In this document: positions 41,828-51,576 of the stretch, one piece after another
Position numbering within the stretch: position 1 is the first letter of the stretch
Layout of the letters: every line of letters begins with the position of its first letter
Assembly: GCF_001029105.3 (NCBI RefSeq)
Contig: NZ_CP011807.3
Coordinates: 2,232,001 to 2,296,000 of the forward strand
Length of the DNA: 64,000 bases
From: Pandoraea faecigallinarum
Lineage (GTDB): Bacteria; Pseudomonadota; Gammaproteobacteria; Burkholderiales; Burkholderiaceae
Direction: 5' to 3'
Notes under the pieces: generated by a model
The model's input: only the letters and a program-made list of their open reading frames with translations
The model's database searches: none
Told to the model about the DNA's origin: nothing
Program-made: the position numbers and the translations under genes

Positions 41828-43396
41828 CAGATTGCTGACGAACCCCTCGTTTTTCGGAGCGAGGGGTTTTATCTTTTAGGCAAGGGCGAATGGGCAGCGT
41901 AAGGGCGCGCACATTGAGAGACAAGCCCTCAGGACGCTCATGAGCCACCGAAACGGGCGCCAGAGGTACGAACGCTCGCCTAAACGCGCCCGTAGGCGCG
42001 CCACCAGCATCGCAATTTTCTTGATGTTCTGCGCCGCCGCAGCCAACAAGCACTGCTCGGCCACCTTGCGCAGCCCGCGCATGCGCGCATAGCGATGCCC
42101 ATGCAGTTGCTTGGCATCGGCAAAGCTGCGTTCCACCGTCTCCTTGCGCCGCGCGTAAATGCGTCGTCCCCACTCGCTCAGCCGCCTCGCGTCCACCCGC
42201 TGCTTGGCGCGCTCCCAGACGTGGCGCGTCACCACCTTCACCGCGTTGGCACTGTTCGTGCACTGTGCTCGTACCGGGCAGCACCGGCATATCCGAGCAT
42301 CGGATTTGTATTCCCGATAGCCGAGCCGGTTAGTCGTGCTGTACGGCAGCGCCTGTCCCTGCGGGCACACGTACTCGTTGCGGTACGCGTCGTACTGGAA
42401 CTGCCGTTTGTAGAACAGCCCCGGCTTGTGGTTCGGCGTGCGATAGCCCATCACCCCGGCAATCTCCCGCTCCTCCAGCCCCTGGCACACCGCTGGCGTG
42501 AAGTAGCCAGCATCCAGCCCCACCGCTTCCACCTTGAACTCAAAGCGCTCGCGCTGTCGATCCAGCCGCTCCAGATACGGCTGGCTGTCGTGCACCGAGG
42601 CCGGCGTCACATGCGTATCGGTAATGATCGCGTGCTTGGCGTCCACCGTGCGGTGGTCCAGATAGAAGAAGCCCTTCGGCTTGTCGTCCCGCACCATGTA
42701 GCCGCTGTCCGGATCGGTCCGGCTAATCTTGGTGTCCTTGCTCGACGGCGGCTCATCGTCGTCCCGATTCAGCGGCTTCTTGCCATGCGCGGCCCGGTCC
42801 GCATCCACTGCCGCATTGAGCTTCTCCAGATAGGCCGCAGGCGTCTGTTCCAGCTTTACCACGTCGAACTTGTTCTTGTTCGCGTTGGCCTTCAGGTGCG
42901 TGCTGTCGGTGTACAGCACACGGCCATCGACCAGACCACGGCCCATCGCCTGGCGCACGATCTCGTCGAAGATCTCCTGATACACCGTCGTGTCCGTGAA
43001 GCGTCGGCGGCGATTCTGTGAGAACGTCGACGCATCCGGCACCTTGTCGGTCAGCCGAAACCGGGCGAACCACCGGTAGGCGACGTTGACCTGGACCTCG
43101 CGCATCAACTGCCGCTCACTGCGCACCCCAAACAGGTAGCCGATGAACAGCAGCTTGAACATCACCACCGGATCGAGCGCCGGACGACCGTTGTCTGCGC
43201 AGTACAGATGCGCGACCTTTTCGCGGATGAATTCGAAATCCACTGCCGCGTCGATCTGGCGCAGCAGGTGGTCCTTCGGCACGAGTTCCTCGAGCGTCAC
43301 CATCTCGAGTTCGTGCTGCGTGGGCGTCGGGATCTTTAGCATCCTGCTATTAAAAAACAAAACCCTCGCACTTGGCGAGGGTTTGTCAGCAATCTG
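41828..43396 (-). mobile_element. IS1182-family insertion sequence, complete, 1569 bp
   Basis: Bounded by inverted repeats that begin CAGATTGCTGAC at both ends (left from 41828; right end at 43396 on the complement); the match continues as rAACCC. Each end then carries a stem-loop resembling a terminator (41841-41872 and 43356-43384). It contains one intact transposase gene and is flanked by a perfect 22-bp direct repeat. Long and variable duplications and insertion at hairpins are known for this family. Confidence 0.9.
41876..43342 (-). CDS. IS1182-family DDE transposase
   Basis: A 488-residue intact transposase. The N-terminal DUF772 domain reads DHLLRQIDAAVDF, then PALDPVVMFKLLFIGYLFGV and SERQLMREVQVNVAYRWF; the catalytic core follows with VLYTDSTHLKANANK and AVGLDAGYFTP, and YRTPNHKPG; a zinc-finger-like CRCCPVRAQC precedes ETVERSFADAKQLHGHRYAR, with the catalytic Glu. 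ATG 43342 (MLKIPTPTQHELEMV) was preferred to an earlier in-frame start at 43360, which would lie in the end structure. Confidence 0.92.
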   Translation of the reverse strand: MLKIPTPTQHELEMVTLEELVPKDHLLRQIDAAVDFEFIREKVAHLYCADNGRPALDPVVMFKLLFIGYLFGVRSERQLMREVQVNVAYRWFARFRLTDKVPDASTFSQNRRRRFTDTTVYQEIFDEIVRQAMGRGLVDGRVLYTDSTHLKANANKNKFDVVKLEQTPAAYLEKLNAAVDADRAAHGKKPLNRDDDEPPSSKDTKISRTDPDSGYMVRDDKPKGFFYLDHRTVDAKHAIITDTHVTPASVHDSQPYLERLDRQRERFEFKVEAVGLDAGYFTPAVCQGLEEREIAGVMGYRTPNHKPGLFYKRQFQYDAYRNEYVCPQGQALPYSTTNRLGYREYKSDARICRCCPVRAQCTNSANAVKVVTRHVWERAKQRVDARRLSEWGRRIYARRKETVERSFADAKQLHGHRYARMRGLRKVAEQCLLAAAAQNIKKIAMLVARLRARLGERSYLWRPFRWLMSVLRACLSMCAPLRCPFALA

Positions 43397-46623: not shown

Positions 46624-46974
46624 TTAGCTACCGCGATACGTGGAAAAGCTCCACGGCGACACCAGAAGGGGCACGTGGTAATGCTGCGAAGGCTCGGCGA
46701 TGCCGAAACGCAGGACAACGCGATCGACGAAGCGCGGCGTGGGCACGTTCACACCCTGCGCAGCAAAGTAGTCGCCCGCGTGGAACACAAGCTCATATTC
46801 GCCAGTAACGAAGTCTTCGCCTTCGAGCAACGGCTTGTCGCAACGGCCGTCGGCATTGGTCTGCACGTCGCGCAGCGAACGGCGCTCGCCGTCAACGCGC
46901 CACAACTCGACACGGATGCCGGCGCCGGGCTTGCCGTGCGATGTATCTAGTACGTGGGTAGTCAGTCGTCCCAT
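46624..46974 (-). CDS. uraH: 5-hydroxyisourate hydrolase (transthyretin-related protein)
   Basis: Hydrolyses 5-hydroxyisourate to OHCU, between PuuD and UraD. The product is 116 residues: GRLTTHVLDTSHGKPGAG at the N-terminus, RVELWR, and the diagnostic C-terminal YRGS tetrapeptide. It is the first gene of a uraH-puuD pair. An IS1111-group element lies only 6 nt upstream of its ATG, so the bases just before the start no longer provide a Shine-Dalgarno sequence (GTTCATATAGACATC-ATG). The coding region is intact; expression is in doubt. Confidence 0.94.
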   Translation of the reverse strand: MGRLTTHVLDTSHGKPGAGIRVELWRVDGERRSLRDVQTNADGRCDKPLLEGEDFVTGEYELVFHAGDYFAAQGVNVPTPRFVDRVVLRFGIAEPSQHYHVPLLVSPWSFSTYRGS

Positions 46975-46983
46975 GATGTCTAT

Positions 46984-47261
46984 ATGAACGCGTCCCGTTT
47001 GCAACAGTTTTCGCGTGTTTTGATAGACAGGATGGGCTGCAGCTCTATATCCGGCCTCGATGCAGTCGGTACAGTCGCTGCGGGCCCCTATGAAATTCGC
47101 TGACTCGCACCTCATTCTCCCGGCGAGCTCAAAGCTCGAGGCATCATTCAGGTTTAGCGAGTCCCGGTCCTACCTGGCTTGTCATCACACTCGATTGCTG
47201 CGCAACCTTTCGACGTTCACCCTGTGTTTAAACGTTAATCCTCTACGCAAGCGCTGCCCGT
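46984..47261 (-). ncRNA. Noncoding end of the IS1111 element, probable guide (bridge/seeker) RNA region
   Basis: About 280 nt between the transposase stop and the right-end repeat hold no gene but several short stems, such as CGAGCT/AGCTCG (47123-47128 with 47132-47137) and CCCGT/ACGGG (47257-47271). In the IS1111 group this 3' end encodes the guide RNA that directs target choice. Assignment is from position only. Confidence 0.45.
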
Positions 47262-48281
47262 TTAGACGGGTTTCACGCTCACGTATCCCTTCTGGTACTG
47301 CCGGTCATGGGCAAGAACTGCCCAGATCGTTCGCGCCATCTTGTTGGCTAACGCGACGATTACGACATTTTTTGGCCGCCGCTTCTGGATTTGTTCGACC
47401 CACTCACCGGGCTCTTTCGCATGCGTCAGCACAGATCGTGCACCGTGAATCAGCAGGGTGCGCAGATATGTGTCGCCGCGCTTTGATATGCCATGCAAGT
47501 TCACCTTGCCGCCCGAACCCGTCTGCTTCGGCACGATCCCAACCCACGCGGCAAACTCTCGTCCCGAACTGAACGCTTTCGCATCTCCCATCATCGCGAC
47601 AGCTGCTGTTGCCGTCAGTAATCCAACACCGGGAATCTCGCTGATGGCCTTGACCGCCTTATCCTCTTTCTTCCACTCGCGCATCCGACGCTCGATCTCA
47701 GCGATCTGCTCATCAAGCTTCTCCAGTCCGTTCCACTGCGCGCGAAACGTATCGATCAGCACGGCAGGCAAACGCTCCGCAATCCGTTCGAGCACAGCGG
47801 GTATTTCCTTATCGAGCTTCGCCCGACTCTTGCCCATCACTTCACCGTATTCCGTTAGCAGCCCTCGCAGAGCATTAATCTGCATCGTGCGAAATTTGAT
47901 CAGTTGCTGTCTCATCCGGTGCAGCCCCAGCATGGCTTGCTGCATTTCGGTCTTTACTGCGACCGGCTTGCCCGGCTGCTGCACGGCCAGCCAGATCGCC
48001 TTCGCATCAGCCGCATCGCTCTTGTTCCTGATGTTGAAAGCCTTTACGAACTCCCCCGGCATCAGCTTCACCTCGTGGCCCAGCTTCGCGAGTTGCCGGG
48101 CCCAGTGGTGCGCACCACCGCACGCTTCCATCCCGATCAGGCACGGCGCTCGGTTCGCAAAATGCTCAAGGAACTTTGCCCGCTTGATCGGCTTGTTCAC
48201 GATCTCGCCAGTTTCCTGATCGACGTAATGCACTTGGAACACACTTTTCGCGATGTCTACACCCACTGCCGTACAATTCAC
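47262..48281 (-). CDS. IS110-family transposase (IS1111 group)
   Basis: A 339-residue DEDD recombinase. The N-terminal RuvC-like domain begins VGVDIAKSVFQVHYVD, with IGMEACGGAHHWARQL, MPGEFVKAFNIRNKSDAADA and LGLHRMRQQLIKFRTMQIN. The C-terminal Tnp_20 domain has ISEIPGVGLLTATA, FAAWVGIVPKQTGSGGKVN and GDTYLRTLLIHGARS with the catalytic Ser region. The start is GTG at 48281, preceded by GGAGG six bases away; the upstream open frame to 48374 is not coding. Confidence 0.92.
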   Translation of the reverse strand: MNCTAVGVDIAKSVFQVHYVDQETGEIVNKPIKRAKFLEHFANRAPCLIGMEACGGAHHWARQLAKLGHEVKLMPGEFVKAFNIRNKSDAADAKAIWLAVQQPGKPVAVKTEMQQAMLGLHRMRQQLIKFRTMQINALRGLLTEYGEVMGKSRAKLDKEIPAVLERIAERLPAVLIDTFRAQWNGLEKLDEQIAEIERRMREWKKEDKAVKAISEIPGVGLLTATAAVAMMGDAKAFSSGREFAAWVGIVPKQTGSGGKVNLHGISKRGDTYLRTLLIHGARSVLTHAKEPGEWVEQIQKRRPKNVVIVALANKMARTIWAVLAHDRQYQKGYVSVKPV

Positions 48282-48407
48282 TCGGATCCTCCGGTTGCTT
48301 TGGAAAACTTCGTATTTTCCACTTTGGGCACATCGATGCCGTTGGCCCGTGAGGATCCACCTTCCTTTGCTCACTCGGTCACGGGGTGGGACGCGTTCAT
48401 TTCATTC

Positions 48408-48850
48408 TCCTGTGATGGATGGGTGCATTGTAGGGAGATGGCGGCCCGGCAACGCGCGCAATACCAAAGATAAAAACGTGCACATACCCTGTCACGCCGG
48501 ACAAAAAGCCGAAGCCCGTCAAGCGGCACGTCAATATGGCATGGGGACGTCTCAAGCGTACGTCGCATGCGCGGGAATTGGGATTTTTGGGAGCGCTATC
48601 CGGTTTCGTTATCGCGGATATAACGATATTCGTATGACCCGTTATCGCAGCAGGAGACACGTCGCCCGGAAAGCCCAATGGTTACGTGGATCCTTGGGGA
48701 AAACCCGAAACGCATAATAAGCATTCATGCATACGTTCCATGAAAAAAACACTATAGCCGTGGGTGGTCTTGCCGCAAAAGGCGTCGACCTGCACCATTG
48801 AGTCACCCTAAAAATAGACATCAAACAGCCCCCCGAGGGACGGAGACGCA
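48408..48850. other. Divergent control region between uraH (displaced) and the purine permease gene
   Basis: About 440 nt without a gene. On the minus strand AGGA at 48408-48411 and TACAAT (complement of 48427-48432) look like the original uraH ribosome binding site half and -10. Toward the permease, GTTATCGC occurs at 48608-48615 and 48641-48648, and CGTTAT/ATAACG form an inverted repeat at 48607-48625. The right third is AT-rich. A GGAG at 48840-48843 serves the permease. Confidence 0.5.
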
Positions 48851-50218
48851 ATGAGTGTGACGACTAACGCCGTGGATCCGGTCGACGAGCGACTGCCGAT
48901 CGGAAAATTGTTCATGCTGGGCCTGCAACACGTTTTGGTCATGTATGCGGGGGCGGTCGCCGTGCCCCTCATCATTGGCGGCGCTCTTGGACTGCCCAAG
49001 GACCAGATTGCGTTTTTGATTTCCGCCGACCTGATGTGCTGCGGCATCGCCACGCTGATCCAGAGCGTTGGCATCGGCCGCTTCGGTATTCGCATGCCTG
49101 TCATCATGGCCGTGACGTTCGCGGCCGTCGGTCCCATGCTCGCGATCGGCACCAATCCCTCGCTCGGCCTGCCCGGCATCTTCGGGGCGACGATTGCCTC
49201 CGGCATCATCGGCACCCTGATTGCGCCGCTCGTCGGCAAGCTCCTGCGGTTCTTTCCGCCCATCGTCACGGGCATCGTCATTACGTCCATCGGTCTGACG
49301 ATCATCGGCGTAGGCATCAACTGGGCGGCCGGCGGCGTGGGTAACCCCGACTATGGCGATCCCGTCTACCTCGGTGTGTCGTTCGCGGTGCTTATCTTCA
49401 TCTTGCTGGTCACGCGCTTCGTGAAGGGCTTCTTCTCGAACATCGCCGTGCTGCTGGGCATTCTGTTCGGTTTCGTGATTGCGCTGATGCTGCACAAAGT
49501 GAATTTCGACGGTCTCGATCAGGTGAAGTGGTTCGACATCGTGTTGCCGTTCCATTTCGGCATGCCGGTATTCGATCCGTGGGCGATTCTCACGCTCACC
49601 ATCGTGATCCTCATCACGTTCATCGAGTCGACGGGCATGTTCCTCGCGCTGGGGGAAATCGTCGGCAAACCGGTCGACGAAAAGACACTGGTGGCCGGGC
49701 TGCGTGTGGATGGCGTGGCGACCGTGATCGGCGGGTTGTTCAATACGTTCCCGCACACCTCGTTCTCGCAAAACATCGGTCTCGTGGGTGTAACGGGGGT
49801 GAAGAGCCGCTGGGTGTGCGCTGCCGCCGGGGTCATCCTGCTGGTATTCGGCCTGATTCCGAAAATGTCGGTGGTCGTGGCGTCGATTCCCCAGTTCGTG
49901 CTGGGCGGCGCAGGCGTCGTCATGTTCGGCATGGTGCTCGCCACGGGCATCAAGATCCTGTCCAAGGTCGATTACGCGCACAACCGCTACAACCTGTATA
50001 TCGTAGCAATCAGCATCGGTATGGCGATGATCCCGGTCGCGTCGAACAAGTTCTTCGCAAAGATGCCGGAACAGCTCGCACCGCTGCTGCATAGCGGAAT
50101 TCTGCTTGCCACACTGTCTGCCGTGATTCTTAACGCCTATTTCAATGGTTTCAAAACCCCCGTGGCGGATGCCCATGGCAGGAAGAATGGCTCGGGCATG
50201 GGGTTGGAGGCGCACTGA
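48851..50218 (+). CDS. Purine (urate/xanthine-type) permease, NAT/NCS2 family
   Basis: A 455-residue inner-membrane proton symporter with about 14 hydrophobic segments. It starts LGLQHVLVMYAGAVAVPLIIG, the first-helix signature. The NAT family motif appears as QNIGLVGVTG after HTSFS, and ESTGMFLALGEIVGKPVDE precedes it. Residues match the UacT/XanP/UraA cluster; its place beside urate genes suggests urate or xanthine. It overlaps the 8-oxoguanine deaminase gene by one base. Confidence 0.92.
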   Translation: MSVTTNAVDPVDERLPIGKLFMLGLQHVLVMYAGAVAVPLIIGGALGLPKDQIAFLISADLMCCGIATLIQSVGIGRFGIRMPVIMAVTFAAVGPMLAIGTNPSLGLPGIFGATIASGIIGTLIAPLVGKLLRFFPPIVTGIVITSIGLTIIGVGINWAAGGVGNPDYGDPVYLGVSFAVLIFILLVTRFVKGFFSNIAVLLGILFGFVIALMLHKVNFDGLDQVKWFDIVLPFHFGMPVFDPWAILTLTIVILITFIESTGMFLALGEIVGKPVDEKTLVAGLRVDGVATVIGGLFNTFPHTSFSQNIGLVGVTGVKSRWVCAAAGVILLVFGLIPKMSVVVASIPQFVLGGAGVVMFGMVLATGIKILSKVDYAHNRYNLYIVAISIGMAMIPVASNKFFAKMPEQLAPLLHSGILLATLSAVILNAYFNGFKTPVADAHGRKNGSGMGLEAH

Positions 50219-51576
50219 TGAAAACGCTGCTCGTCAAGAATGCCGAAGTGCTCGTGACGATGGACGCCGGCCGCCGCGAGATCGCCCGCGGCGGGCTGTA
50301 CGTCGAGGGCAACCGGATCGTGGCCGTCGGCACCAGCGACAGTCTGCCGGCGAGTGCGGACGAAGTGATCGATCTGACCGGGCACGTTGTGATTCCCGGT
50401 CTCGTCAATACGCACCACCACATGTACCAGAGCCTCACGCGCGCGATTCCGGCTGCGCAGGATGGCGAGCTTTTCAACTGGCTGACAAACCTCTACCCGG
50501 TGTGGGCAAATCTCACGCCGGAGATGATCCGTGTCTCGACGAAGACGGCGATGGCCGAACTGCTGCTCTCCGGGTGTACCACGTCGAGCGACCATCTCTA
50601 CATCTATCCGAACGGATGCAAGCTGGACGACAGCATCGAAGCCGCCGCCGAGATCGGCATGCGCTTTCATGCGAGCCGGGGAAGCATGAGCGTGGGGCAG
50701 AGTCAGGGCGGCTTGCCGCCGGACCGCGTGGTCGAGCGCGAAGACGACATTCTCAGAGACACCCAGCGACTTATCGAGACGTATCACGACGAAGGCCGTT
50801 ACGCGATGTTGCGTGTGGTGGTGGCCCCGTGCTCGCCGTTCTCCGTGAGCCGCGACCTGATGCGCGAGTCGGCGACGATGGCGCGCCACTATGGCGTGTC
50901 GCTGCACACCCATCTTGCCGAGAACGTCAACGATATCGCCTACAGCCGCGAGAAGTTCGGCATGACGCCGGCGCAGTACGCGCAGGATCTGGGCTGGGTC
51001 GGCCACGATGTCTGGCATGCCCACTGCGTCCAGCTCGACGATGCGGGCATTGCGCTATTCGCGAAGACCGGCACGGGCGTGGCGCATTGCCCATGTTCGA
51101 ACATGCGGCTTGCGTCGGGCATTGCCCCGATTCGACGCATGCGCGACGCCGGTGTGCCCGTCGGGCTCGGCGTGGACGGCTCGGCGTCGAACGACGCCGC
51201 GAGCCTGATCAACGAAGCGCGTCAGGCGCTGCTGCTCCAACGGGTGGGCTTCGGCCCGAGTGCCATGACGGCGCGCGAGGCGCTGGAGATCGCGACCGTG
51301 GGCGGCGCGCGTGTACTCGGGCGCGACGATATCGGCGTGCTCGCCGAAGGCATGGCCGCAGACTTCGTGGCGTTCGACACGCGCGGTGTGGGCATGGCCG
51401 GCGGCTTGCACGATCCGGTCGCCTCGCTCGTCTTCTGTAATCCTGGACAAGCCGCGTACAGCGTGGTGAACGGACGGGTGGTGGTGCGCGAAGGGCGTCT
51501 CGAGACGCTCGACCTGCCGGCGCTCGTCACGCGTCACAACGCGCTGGCGCGGCAACTGGCCGAGGCTTCCCGATAA
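50218..51576 (+). CDS. 8-oxoguanine deaminase (amidohydrolase)
   Basis: Probably deaminates 8-oxoguanine to urate. The product is 452 residues, a metal-dependent amidohydrolase of the TrzA/AtzB-like group: HHHMYQ (metal ligands), SGCTTSSDHLYIYP, HTHLAEN, WHAHCVQL and the late DGSASNDAASL Asp. The HHHMYQSLTRAIPAAQDGELF pattern is that of the 8-oxoguanine deaminases, often mislabelled hydroxydechloroatrazine ethylaminohydrolase. Coupling to the purine permease and the nearby urate genes support this role. Guanine or another hydroxylated purine is the alternative. Confidence 0.85.
   Translation: MKTLLVKNAEVLVTMDAGRREIARGGLYVEGNRIVAVGTSDSLPASADEVIDLTGHVVIPGLVNTHHHMYQSLTRAIPAAQDGELFNWLTNLYPVWANLTPEMIRVSTKTAMAELLLSGCTTSSDHLYIYPNGCKLDDSIEAAAEIGMRFHASRGSMSVGQSQGGLPPDRVVEREDDILRDTQRLIETYHDEGRYAMLRVVVAPCSPFSVSRDLMRESATMARHYGVSLHTHLAENVNDIAYSREKFGMTPAQYAQDLGWVGHDVWHAHCVQLDDAGIALFAKTGTGVAHCPCSNMRLASGIAPIRRMRDAGVPVGLGVDGSASNDAASLINEARQALLLQRVGFGPSAMTAREALEIATVGGARVLGRDDIGVLAEGMAADFVAFDTRGVGMAGGLHDPVASLVFCNPGQAAYSVVNGRVVVREGRLETLDLPALVTRHNALARQLAEASR

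What the first reader, a model, noticed from the sequence alone, without database searches (positions are those of the whole stretch)
46971..48440. IS1111-group insertion has separated uraH from its ribosome binding site and probably its promoter
Seen: the uraH ATG (46972-46974 on the complement) is 6 nt from the inferred IS end, and the bases before it have no Shine-Dalgarno. Removing 46981-48407 joins CACAGGA to GACATCATG, giving AGGAGA four bases before the ATG. This also matches the known 7-bp and 3-bp subterminal offsets of IS1111-group ends. Inference: urate catabolism via PuuD-UraH is now silenced, or driven by outward transcription from the element.
Basis: partly seen in the sequence, partly recalled or inferred. 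Interest (0 to 1): 0.75.

Follow-up and report, generated by a model that had tools for sequence, protein, structure and literature searches.

The report
Jumping gene guided to gene starts
A mobile DNA element has inserted exactly between the ribosome-binding site and the start codon of a urate-breakdown gene, and all nine copies in this genome sit at gene starts in the same way, matching a guide sequence in the element's own non-coding region.

Summary
A 1427-bp IS1111-group element (46981-48407, minus strand) lies between the Shine-Dalgarno sequence (SD) and the ATG of uraH. In 26 of 29 fetched Pandoraea orthologues the site is unbroken AGGAGACA(T/C)CATG, 12 of them exactly CACAGGAGACATCATG.

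The larger finding was missed. The genome holds nine identical copies, all sense-oriented between GGAG and an ATG with an open frame. The element's 3' non-coding region has a seekRNA/bridge-RNA-like loop: AATGATGCC complements the right target half GGCATCAT, including AT of the start codon; CCGGGAG equals the SD half. Across 49 distinct guide pairs, guides match their own flanks far beyond permutation. Of 86 distinct sites, those whose left guide ends in GGAG (36 sites, 15 guide pairs) lie at gene starts in 31 of 36 cases, against 13 of 50 for the others. On the transposase tree this programme changed at least five times.

Best reading: an RNA-guided insertion sequence programmed to recognise translation-start signals. 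IS900 is the precedent for the target type. Loss of UraH is likely but untested; puuD keeps its own SD.

The parts
46981..48407 (-). IS1111-group insertion sequence, 1427 bp
   Evidence: nine copies identical over this span; empty site in relatives
48388..48400 (-). left subterminal inverted repeat ATGAACGCGTCCC, 7 bp inside the left end
46984..46996 (-). right subterminal inverted repeat GGGACGCGTTCAT, 3 bp inside the right end
47262..48281 (-). transposase, 339 aa from GTG 48281 (SD GGAGGA)
   Evidence: PF01548 + PF02371, NF033542 IS110 family RNA-guided transposase, 345 bits, cut-off 140
47102..47163 (-). predicted seekRNA/bridge-RNA target loop (stem, internal loop with both guides, apical hairpin)
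   Evidence: folding of the strand and of 49 aligned relatives; no Rfam family at E <= 1 on this strand
47140..47148 (-). guide AATGATGCC, complementary to right target half GGCATCAT (includes AT of the start codon)
   Evidence: covariation with right flanks of relatives
47117..47123 (-). guide CCGGGAG, same sequence as left target half (the SD)
   Evidence: covariation with left flanks of relatives
48407..48411 (-). SD of uraH (AGGAG), now stranded before the element
46624..46974 (-). uraH, 5-hydroxyisourate hydrolase, 116 aa, without SD
   Evidence: PF00576, TIGR02962; only PF00576 match in the genome
45378..46583 (-). puuD-type membrane urate oxidase, with its own SD GAGGAG
   Evidence: PF06181, SD energy
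48427..48495 (-). probable uraH promoter region (GTGACA-17-TATCTT at 48495-48467; conserved TACAAT at 48432-48427), reads into the element
   Evidence: prediction only, the consensus scan is at chance level
48371..48400 (-). short frame MNASHPVTE that begins in the left repeat, 6 bases after the captured GGAG
   Evidence: length and end not conserved, so probably not a gene

Best explanation
This is an IS1111-group, RNA-guided insertion sequence whose seekRNA is programmed for translation-start signals: one guide reads the SD (...GGAG), the other reads the bases up to and including AT of the ATG start codon. It inserts precisely, without target duplication, between SD and ATG, in all nine copies here with the transposase in the sense of the target gene. 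Shown: position, precision, nine of nine sites, guide-target covariation. Inferred: the 3' non-coding region is made into a guide RNA, the target gene loses most of its translation, and the host promoter now transcribes the transposase. At uraH this should stop or strongly cut UraH synthesis while leaving puuD translatable if read-through occurs.
For: Nine identical copies at nine different places: 9 of 9 with GGAG before and ATG 6-7 bases after the element, ORF of at least 70 codons, same orientation. An ATG at +5..+9 with ORF >=50 is found at 3.3% of random positions in 22 loci of this genome. Empty sites: uraH 26 of 29 loci; a GST-like gene, 14 of 14 fetched orthologues uninterrupted, 13 of 14 with GGGAGACATCATG; an SDR gene, 14 of 14 uninterrupted with GGAG five bases before ATG. 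Guides match own flanks over 49 distinct guide pairs (from 68 of 70 sites): right 6.98 of 8 versus permuted mean 3.83 (max 4.51 of 10,000); left 5.41 of 7 versus 3.75 (max 4.16). The guide order (top-strand match 5' of bottom-strand match) is the one reported for IS1111 seekRNAs (PMC11187229, sections 6, 9, 13 read). Left guide NNNGGAG: 31 of 36 sites at gene starts, other guides 13 of 50, Fisher p 2.4e-8; by guide pair 13 of 15 versus 11 of 40. SD energy -7.4 empty, +0.5 occupied.
Against: No RNA or transposition data. 5 of 36 sites with GGAG guides are not at a start by the ORF rule: L080, L206, L125, and L098 and L195, which have an ATG but an ORF under 50 codons. L125's right flank also fails to match its guide (5 of 9). 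13 of 50 sites with other guides pass the rule, and 25 of 40 other guide pairs also carry the AT that pairs with ATG (13 of 14 in the GGAG class), so part of the ATG signal is family-wide. Sites of one element share one guide and are not independent draws. The SDR orthologues do not have the exact own-genome motif. Predicted starts were not checked against protein data.
Confidence: 0.88

Rival explanations
1. The insertions are random or loosely targeted, and selection removed those inside coding sequences, leaving upstream ones.
For: Intergenic survivors are usual for insertion sequences (general knowledge).
Against: All nine share one orientation, the same motif and, within one base, the same spacing; the guide loop contains that motif and covaries in relatives. 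In this genome 5 GGAGRCATCATG sites are free and 5 of the nine occupied sites have that motif by their flanks, so about half of the best sites are filled.
Confidence: 0.03
2. The transposase protein, not an RNA, recognises the SD-ATG motif.
For: DNA-binding specificity of transposases is common (general knowledge).
Against: Transposases 87-88% identical to this one (L104, L113, L116, L118) sit at other targets, and in each the loop sequence differs and matches its own target.
Confidence: 0.04
3. uraH is still expressed: read-through or an outward promoter gives mRNA, and translation starts without SD or as an N-terminally extended UraH from ATG 47115 inside the element.
For: The frame is open for 65 codons into the right end in 8 of 9 copies; the ORF listing gives a 163-aa frame; no minus-strand terminator-like site in the IS.
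Against: No SD at the ATG (+0.5 kcal/mol); ATG 47115 has only a weak one at 2 bases (-3.4); no consensus promoter at the right end. The open frame is the same DNA in eight copies, so it is one observation, not eight.
Confidence: 0.2
4. The element is a reversible switch: precise excision restores SD and ATG in part of the population, so the target gene varies in phase.
For: Insertion leaves no duplication or scar, so exact excision would restore the gene; high-frequency precise excision is known for IS492 (title seen in the reference list of PMC11208160).
Against: No excised form was seen here; one assembly of this strain was searched, and no reads.
Confidence: 0.15

Closest known systems
IS1111 group of the IS110 family with seekRNA / bridge RNA (e.g. 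ISEc11, ISPa11, ISKpn4, IS4321; Siddiquee 2024 PMC11187229, Durrant 2024 PMC11208160)
   Same: PF01548/PF02371 transposase of 339 aa, 13-bp subterminal repeats with 7/3-bp extensions, non-coding region downstream of the gene, two guides in one stem-loop in the IS1111 order, precise insertion.
   Different: Targets that I saw named for the family are Tn21-family ends, REP sequences and attC sites (reference titles); this element and relatives target translation starts. In PMC11187229 'Shine' and 'ATG' do not occur and 'start codon' and 'ribosome' occur once each in other contexts; in PMC11208160 'start codon' and 'ribosome' do not occur and 'translation initiation' only in a reference. Their figures (target logos) are not held, so a start-site logo there cannot be excluded.
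IS900 of Mycobacterium avium subsp. paratuberculosis (IS110 family, recalled)
   Same: Targets translation initiation signals (Doran 1997, title seen in a reference list; motif CATGNNNNNNTCTCCTT in PMC8141618, passages read).
   Different: There hed, a frame on the strand opposite to the transposase, uses the host signals, so the transposase is antisense to the target gene (inferred from those passages); here it is sense. IS900 is not named in the main text of the two guide-RNA papers.
IS1111-attC group (Tetu & Holmes 2008; Post & Hall 2009, titles seen)
   Same: Same family, conserved targets.
   Different: Target is the integron attC site, not gene starts.

Membership tests
IS1111 group | transposase of 330-350 aa with PF01548 and PF02371 | tested here: met
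   339 aa; both Pfam families and NF033542 over cut-off
IS1111 group | subterminal inverted repeats with short extensions outside | tested here: met
   13 of 13 bp repeats, 7 and 3 bp outside, boundaries set by empty sites
IS1111 group | longer non-coding region downstream of the transposase gene | tested here: met
   281 nt downstream, 126 nt upstream
IS1111 seekRNA / bridge RNA system | two short guides in the non-coding region that match top and bottom target strands, top-strand match first | tested here: met
   against section 9 of PMC11187229
IS1111 seekRNA / bridge RNA system | RNA made and bound by the transposase, needed for transposition | not testable with these tools
   no expression or biochemical data
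IS900-type targeting | insertion between RBS and start codon | tested here: met
   9 of 9 copies in this genome
IS900-type targeting | host RBS drives a long frame (hed) opposite to the transposase | tested here: not met
   transposase is in the sense of the target gene in 9 of 9; the frame after the captured SD has 9 codons

The most novel reading that the evidence does not exclude
A lineage of RNA-guided insertion sequences, mostly in Burkholderiaceae, has repeatedly rewritten its guide RNA to the grammar of translation initiation (SD on one guide, start codon on the other, free variation in the spacer). This gives it a landing signal that every bacterial host carries, places its transposase under host promoters, and makes each insertion a precise, possibly reversible translational off-switch.
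Probability: 0.4. Interest if true: 0.78.

Novelty: new variant of a known kind. Interest (0 to 1): 0.64.

Why it matters
It links two things known apart: insertion sequences that hit translation starts (IS900) and RNA-guided target choice in IS110/IS1111. If right, it explains how a mobile element can use the most conserved short signal of bacterial genes as a landing site, and it lets one predict target genes from the guide alone. It also offers natural guide pairs for testing how much mismatch these RNAs tolerate.

Tried and rejected
Outward promoter at the right end: no consensus site. Leader peptide MNASHPVTE after the captured SD as a conserved gene: in relatives of the GGAG class the frame ends after 6 to 10 codons, in one (L055) after 50, and its first codons are fixed by the inverted repeat, so not supported. 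Rfam match for the guide RNA: only a below-threshold hit on the other strand, outside the loop. The element in phages: no match. The ten literature searches for IS1111, IS110 or IS900 with Shine-Dalgarno, start codon, ribosome binding site, translation initiation, seekRNA or bridge RNA showed in their listings no report of an IS1111 element guided to gene starts; only open-licence papers are held, so this is no proof of absence. Passages of PMC7823733 and PMC11616780 were looked at and do not report gene-start targeting.

Counting. A first left-guide score was too narrow in its offsets and was redone (then 45; L092 and L176 left out of both). The looser class of SD-like left guides (42 sites, 29 with ORF; others 26 sites, 6 with ORF) was replaced by the strict class NNNGGAG. 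One search used hits covering over 200 residues, skipped 34 stretches (ends not found, too near a contig end, or no guide) and counted repeated flanks once. Its script misread the guide of L125, which belongs in the GGAG class; moving it gives 31 of 36 and 13 of 50 in place of 31 of 35 and 13 of 51. L092 and L102 have misplaced ends in the script; without them the other class is 13 of 48. The tree label is strict too: L124, L133 and L205, whose left guide is shifted by one base (GGAGG) and which lie at starts, count there as 'other'.

Full report
What is there. On the minus strand the order is a probable promoter region, the SD of uraH, a 1427-bp insertion sequence, the uraH ATG, uraH and puuD. 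The element encodes a 339-aa transposase with PF01548 and PF02371 and scores 345 bits (cut-off 140) to the NCBI model for IS110 family RNA-guided transposases. It has 13-bp subterminal inverted repeats with 7 and 3 bp outside them, and a 281-nt non-coding region after the gene. The genus is Pandoraea: two genus-mates in the search (G018, G031) match named plasmid records of P. oxalativorans and P. vervacti by coordinates. The species of the window itself is not named.

Empty site. Of 32 genus genomes searched (own included), 31 have a uraH match. Of the 29 loci fetched from other genomes, 26 show AGGAGACA(T/C)CATG without interruption (12 the exact predicted CACAGGAGACATCATG), one is cut off, and two have a different SD. 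The same was seen for two other copies, for which 14 orthologues each were read (of 30 other genomes with a match in each search). A GST-like gene is uninterrupted in 14 of 14, 13 of 14 with GGGAGACATCATG. An SDR gene is uninterrupted in 14 of 14 with GGAG five bases before ATG, but none has exactly the own genome's GGAGGCATCATG.

Nine copies, one rule. The genome holds nine copies identical over the whole element, six on contig C1 and three on the 387-kb contig C2. All nine have (A/G)GGA|G on the left and an ATG 6 or 7 bases after the right end. All have an open frame of at least 70 codons from that ATG and the same orientation. By Pfam the target genes are uraH, a LysR regulator, a GST-like gene, an SDR, a CsbD-like gene and a methyltransferase-like gene; two more were scanned without family match (L003, L007), and L008 is a paralogue of L007 that was not scanned. 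A random position in 22 loci of this genome has an ATG at +5..+9 with ORF of 50 or more in 3.3% of 200,000 trials (the loci are not a random sample of the genome). Nine of nine by chance would be about 4e-14, though the copies share one guide and the figure only rules out random insertion.

Guide. The non-coding region folds into a stem with an internal loop. Its 5' side AATGATGCC is the reverse complement of GGCATCATT, the right target half GGCATCAT plus one base that does not match the G of ATG. Its 3' side CCGGGAG is the left half. This is the order published for IS1111 seekRNAs (PMC11187229, sections 6, 9 and 13 read). Aligning the loop with relatives shows the stems conserved and the two guide segments variable. 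Over 49 distinct guide pairs (68 of 70 sites; two left out) the right guide matches its own flank at 6.98 of 8 positions against 3.83 when flanks are permuted (highest of 10,000 permutations 4.51). The left guide matches at 5.41 of 7 against 3.75 (highest 4.16). I regard target choice by this loop as well supported in silico; that it acts as RNA is inferred from the published systems.

Recurrent programming to gene starts. Of 86 distinct sites with readable ends and guides (34 stretches skipped, duplicates merged), 36 have a left guide ending in GGAG, with 15 guide pairs. 31 of these 36 have an ATG at +5..+9 with an ORF of at least 50 codons (own element 9 of 9, relatives 22 of 27). Among the 50 other sites, 13 do; Fisher p 2.4e-8. 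Counted by guide pair, 13 of 15 have most sites at starts, against 11 of 40 others (one misread row moved). In 13 of the 14 GGAG guide pairs read by the script the right guide carries the AT of the start codon, but so do 25 of 40 others, so that feature is partly family-wide. The exceptions are L080, L098, L125, L195 and L206. A tree of 56 transposases (of 86; identical or broken ones left out) needs six changes of the strict label, at least five forced by well-supported branches. The nearest relative of the window's element on it, L102, has no SD guide. The programme was therefore gained or lost repeatedly.

How it probably works at uraH. The SD (-7.4 kcal/mol with a generic anti-SD sequence, which is recalled) now lies before the element, and the uraH ATG has none (+0.5); puuD keeps -8.6. 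The conserved upstream sequence (TATCTT, TACAAT) and the only sigma-70-like site found (48495-48467; 0.8 expected by chance) point into the element, so the uraH promoter probably now serves the transposase. Read-through to puuD is possible, since no minus-strand terminator-like site lies in the element. UraH is the only PF00576 match of the genome, so UraH activity is likely lost. Whether urate use suffers is open.

Saturation. Five free GGAGRCATCATG sites remain in the genome, with none for the pattern read backwards; four of the five precede ORFs of 74 codons or more. Five of the nine occupied sites had this motif by their flanks. About half of the best sites are thus filled. Of seven free sites of the wider motif RGGAGNNATCATG, one starts a gene that I recognise from memory as atpE (L186), which would probably not tolerate insertion.

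Known and new. The target type is known from IS900 (title of Doran 1997 in a reference list; motif in PMC8141618, passages read), but there the transposase appears to be antisense to the target gene. RNA guidance is known for IS1111/IS110 (PMC11187229; PMC11208160, passages and section 12 read). My ten searches listed no report that joins the two (open-licence papers only, figures not held). I therefore rate it a new variant of a known kind.

Noticed in passing
L010 1501-2944 and L011 1501-2817 (same genome, contigs C2 and C3): A second, 74% identical IS1111 element sits after AAAGG and 8 bases before ATG of a frame beginning MKVAVLNFSG (ParA/StbB-like by memory); for L010 the guides CCGAAAAT / CTAAGGA match.
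   Followed up: partly
window 41876-43360: Another transposase gene (PF13751, PF05598) lies on the far side of the MATE-family gene beside puuD, so the urate locus is flanked by two mobile elements.
   Followed up: no
window 48851-51576: Xanthine-permease-like gene and 8-oxoguanine-deaminase-like gene diverge from uraH: a purine salvage or breakdown cluster.
   Followed up: no
L121, L123, L132: Relatives inserted in a short inverted repeat (GGCTCC...GGAGCC ATG) shared by three different genera; may be a regulatory hairpin before a gene.
   Followed up: no
L125, L069, L156: Right flank TGCGAC-like is shared while the right guide does not match it (3-5 of 9); possibly a hybrid or secondary rearrangement at the right end.
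   Followed up: no
window 46624-47115: The uraH frame stays open 47 codons upstream of its ATG to ATG 47115, which overlaps the guide loop; in 8 of 9 copies the same open end is in frame with the target gene.
   Followed up: partly
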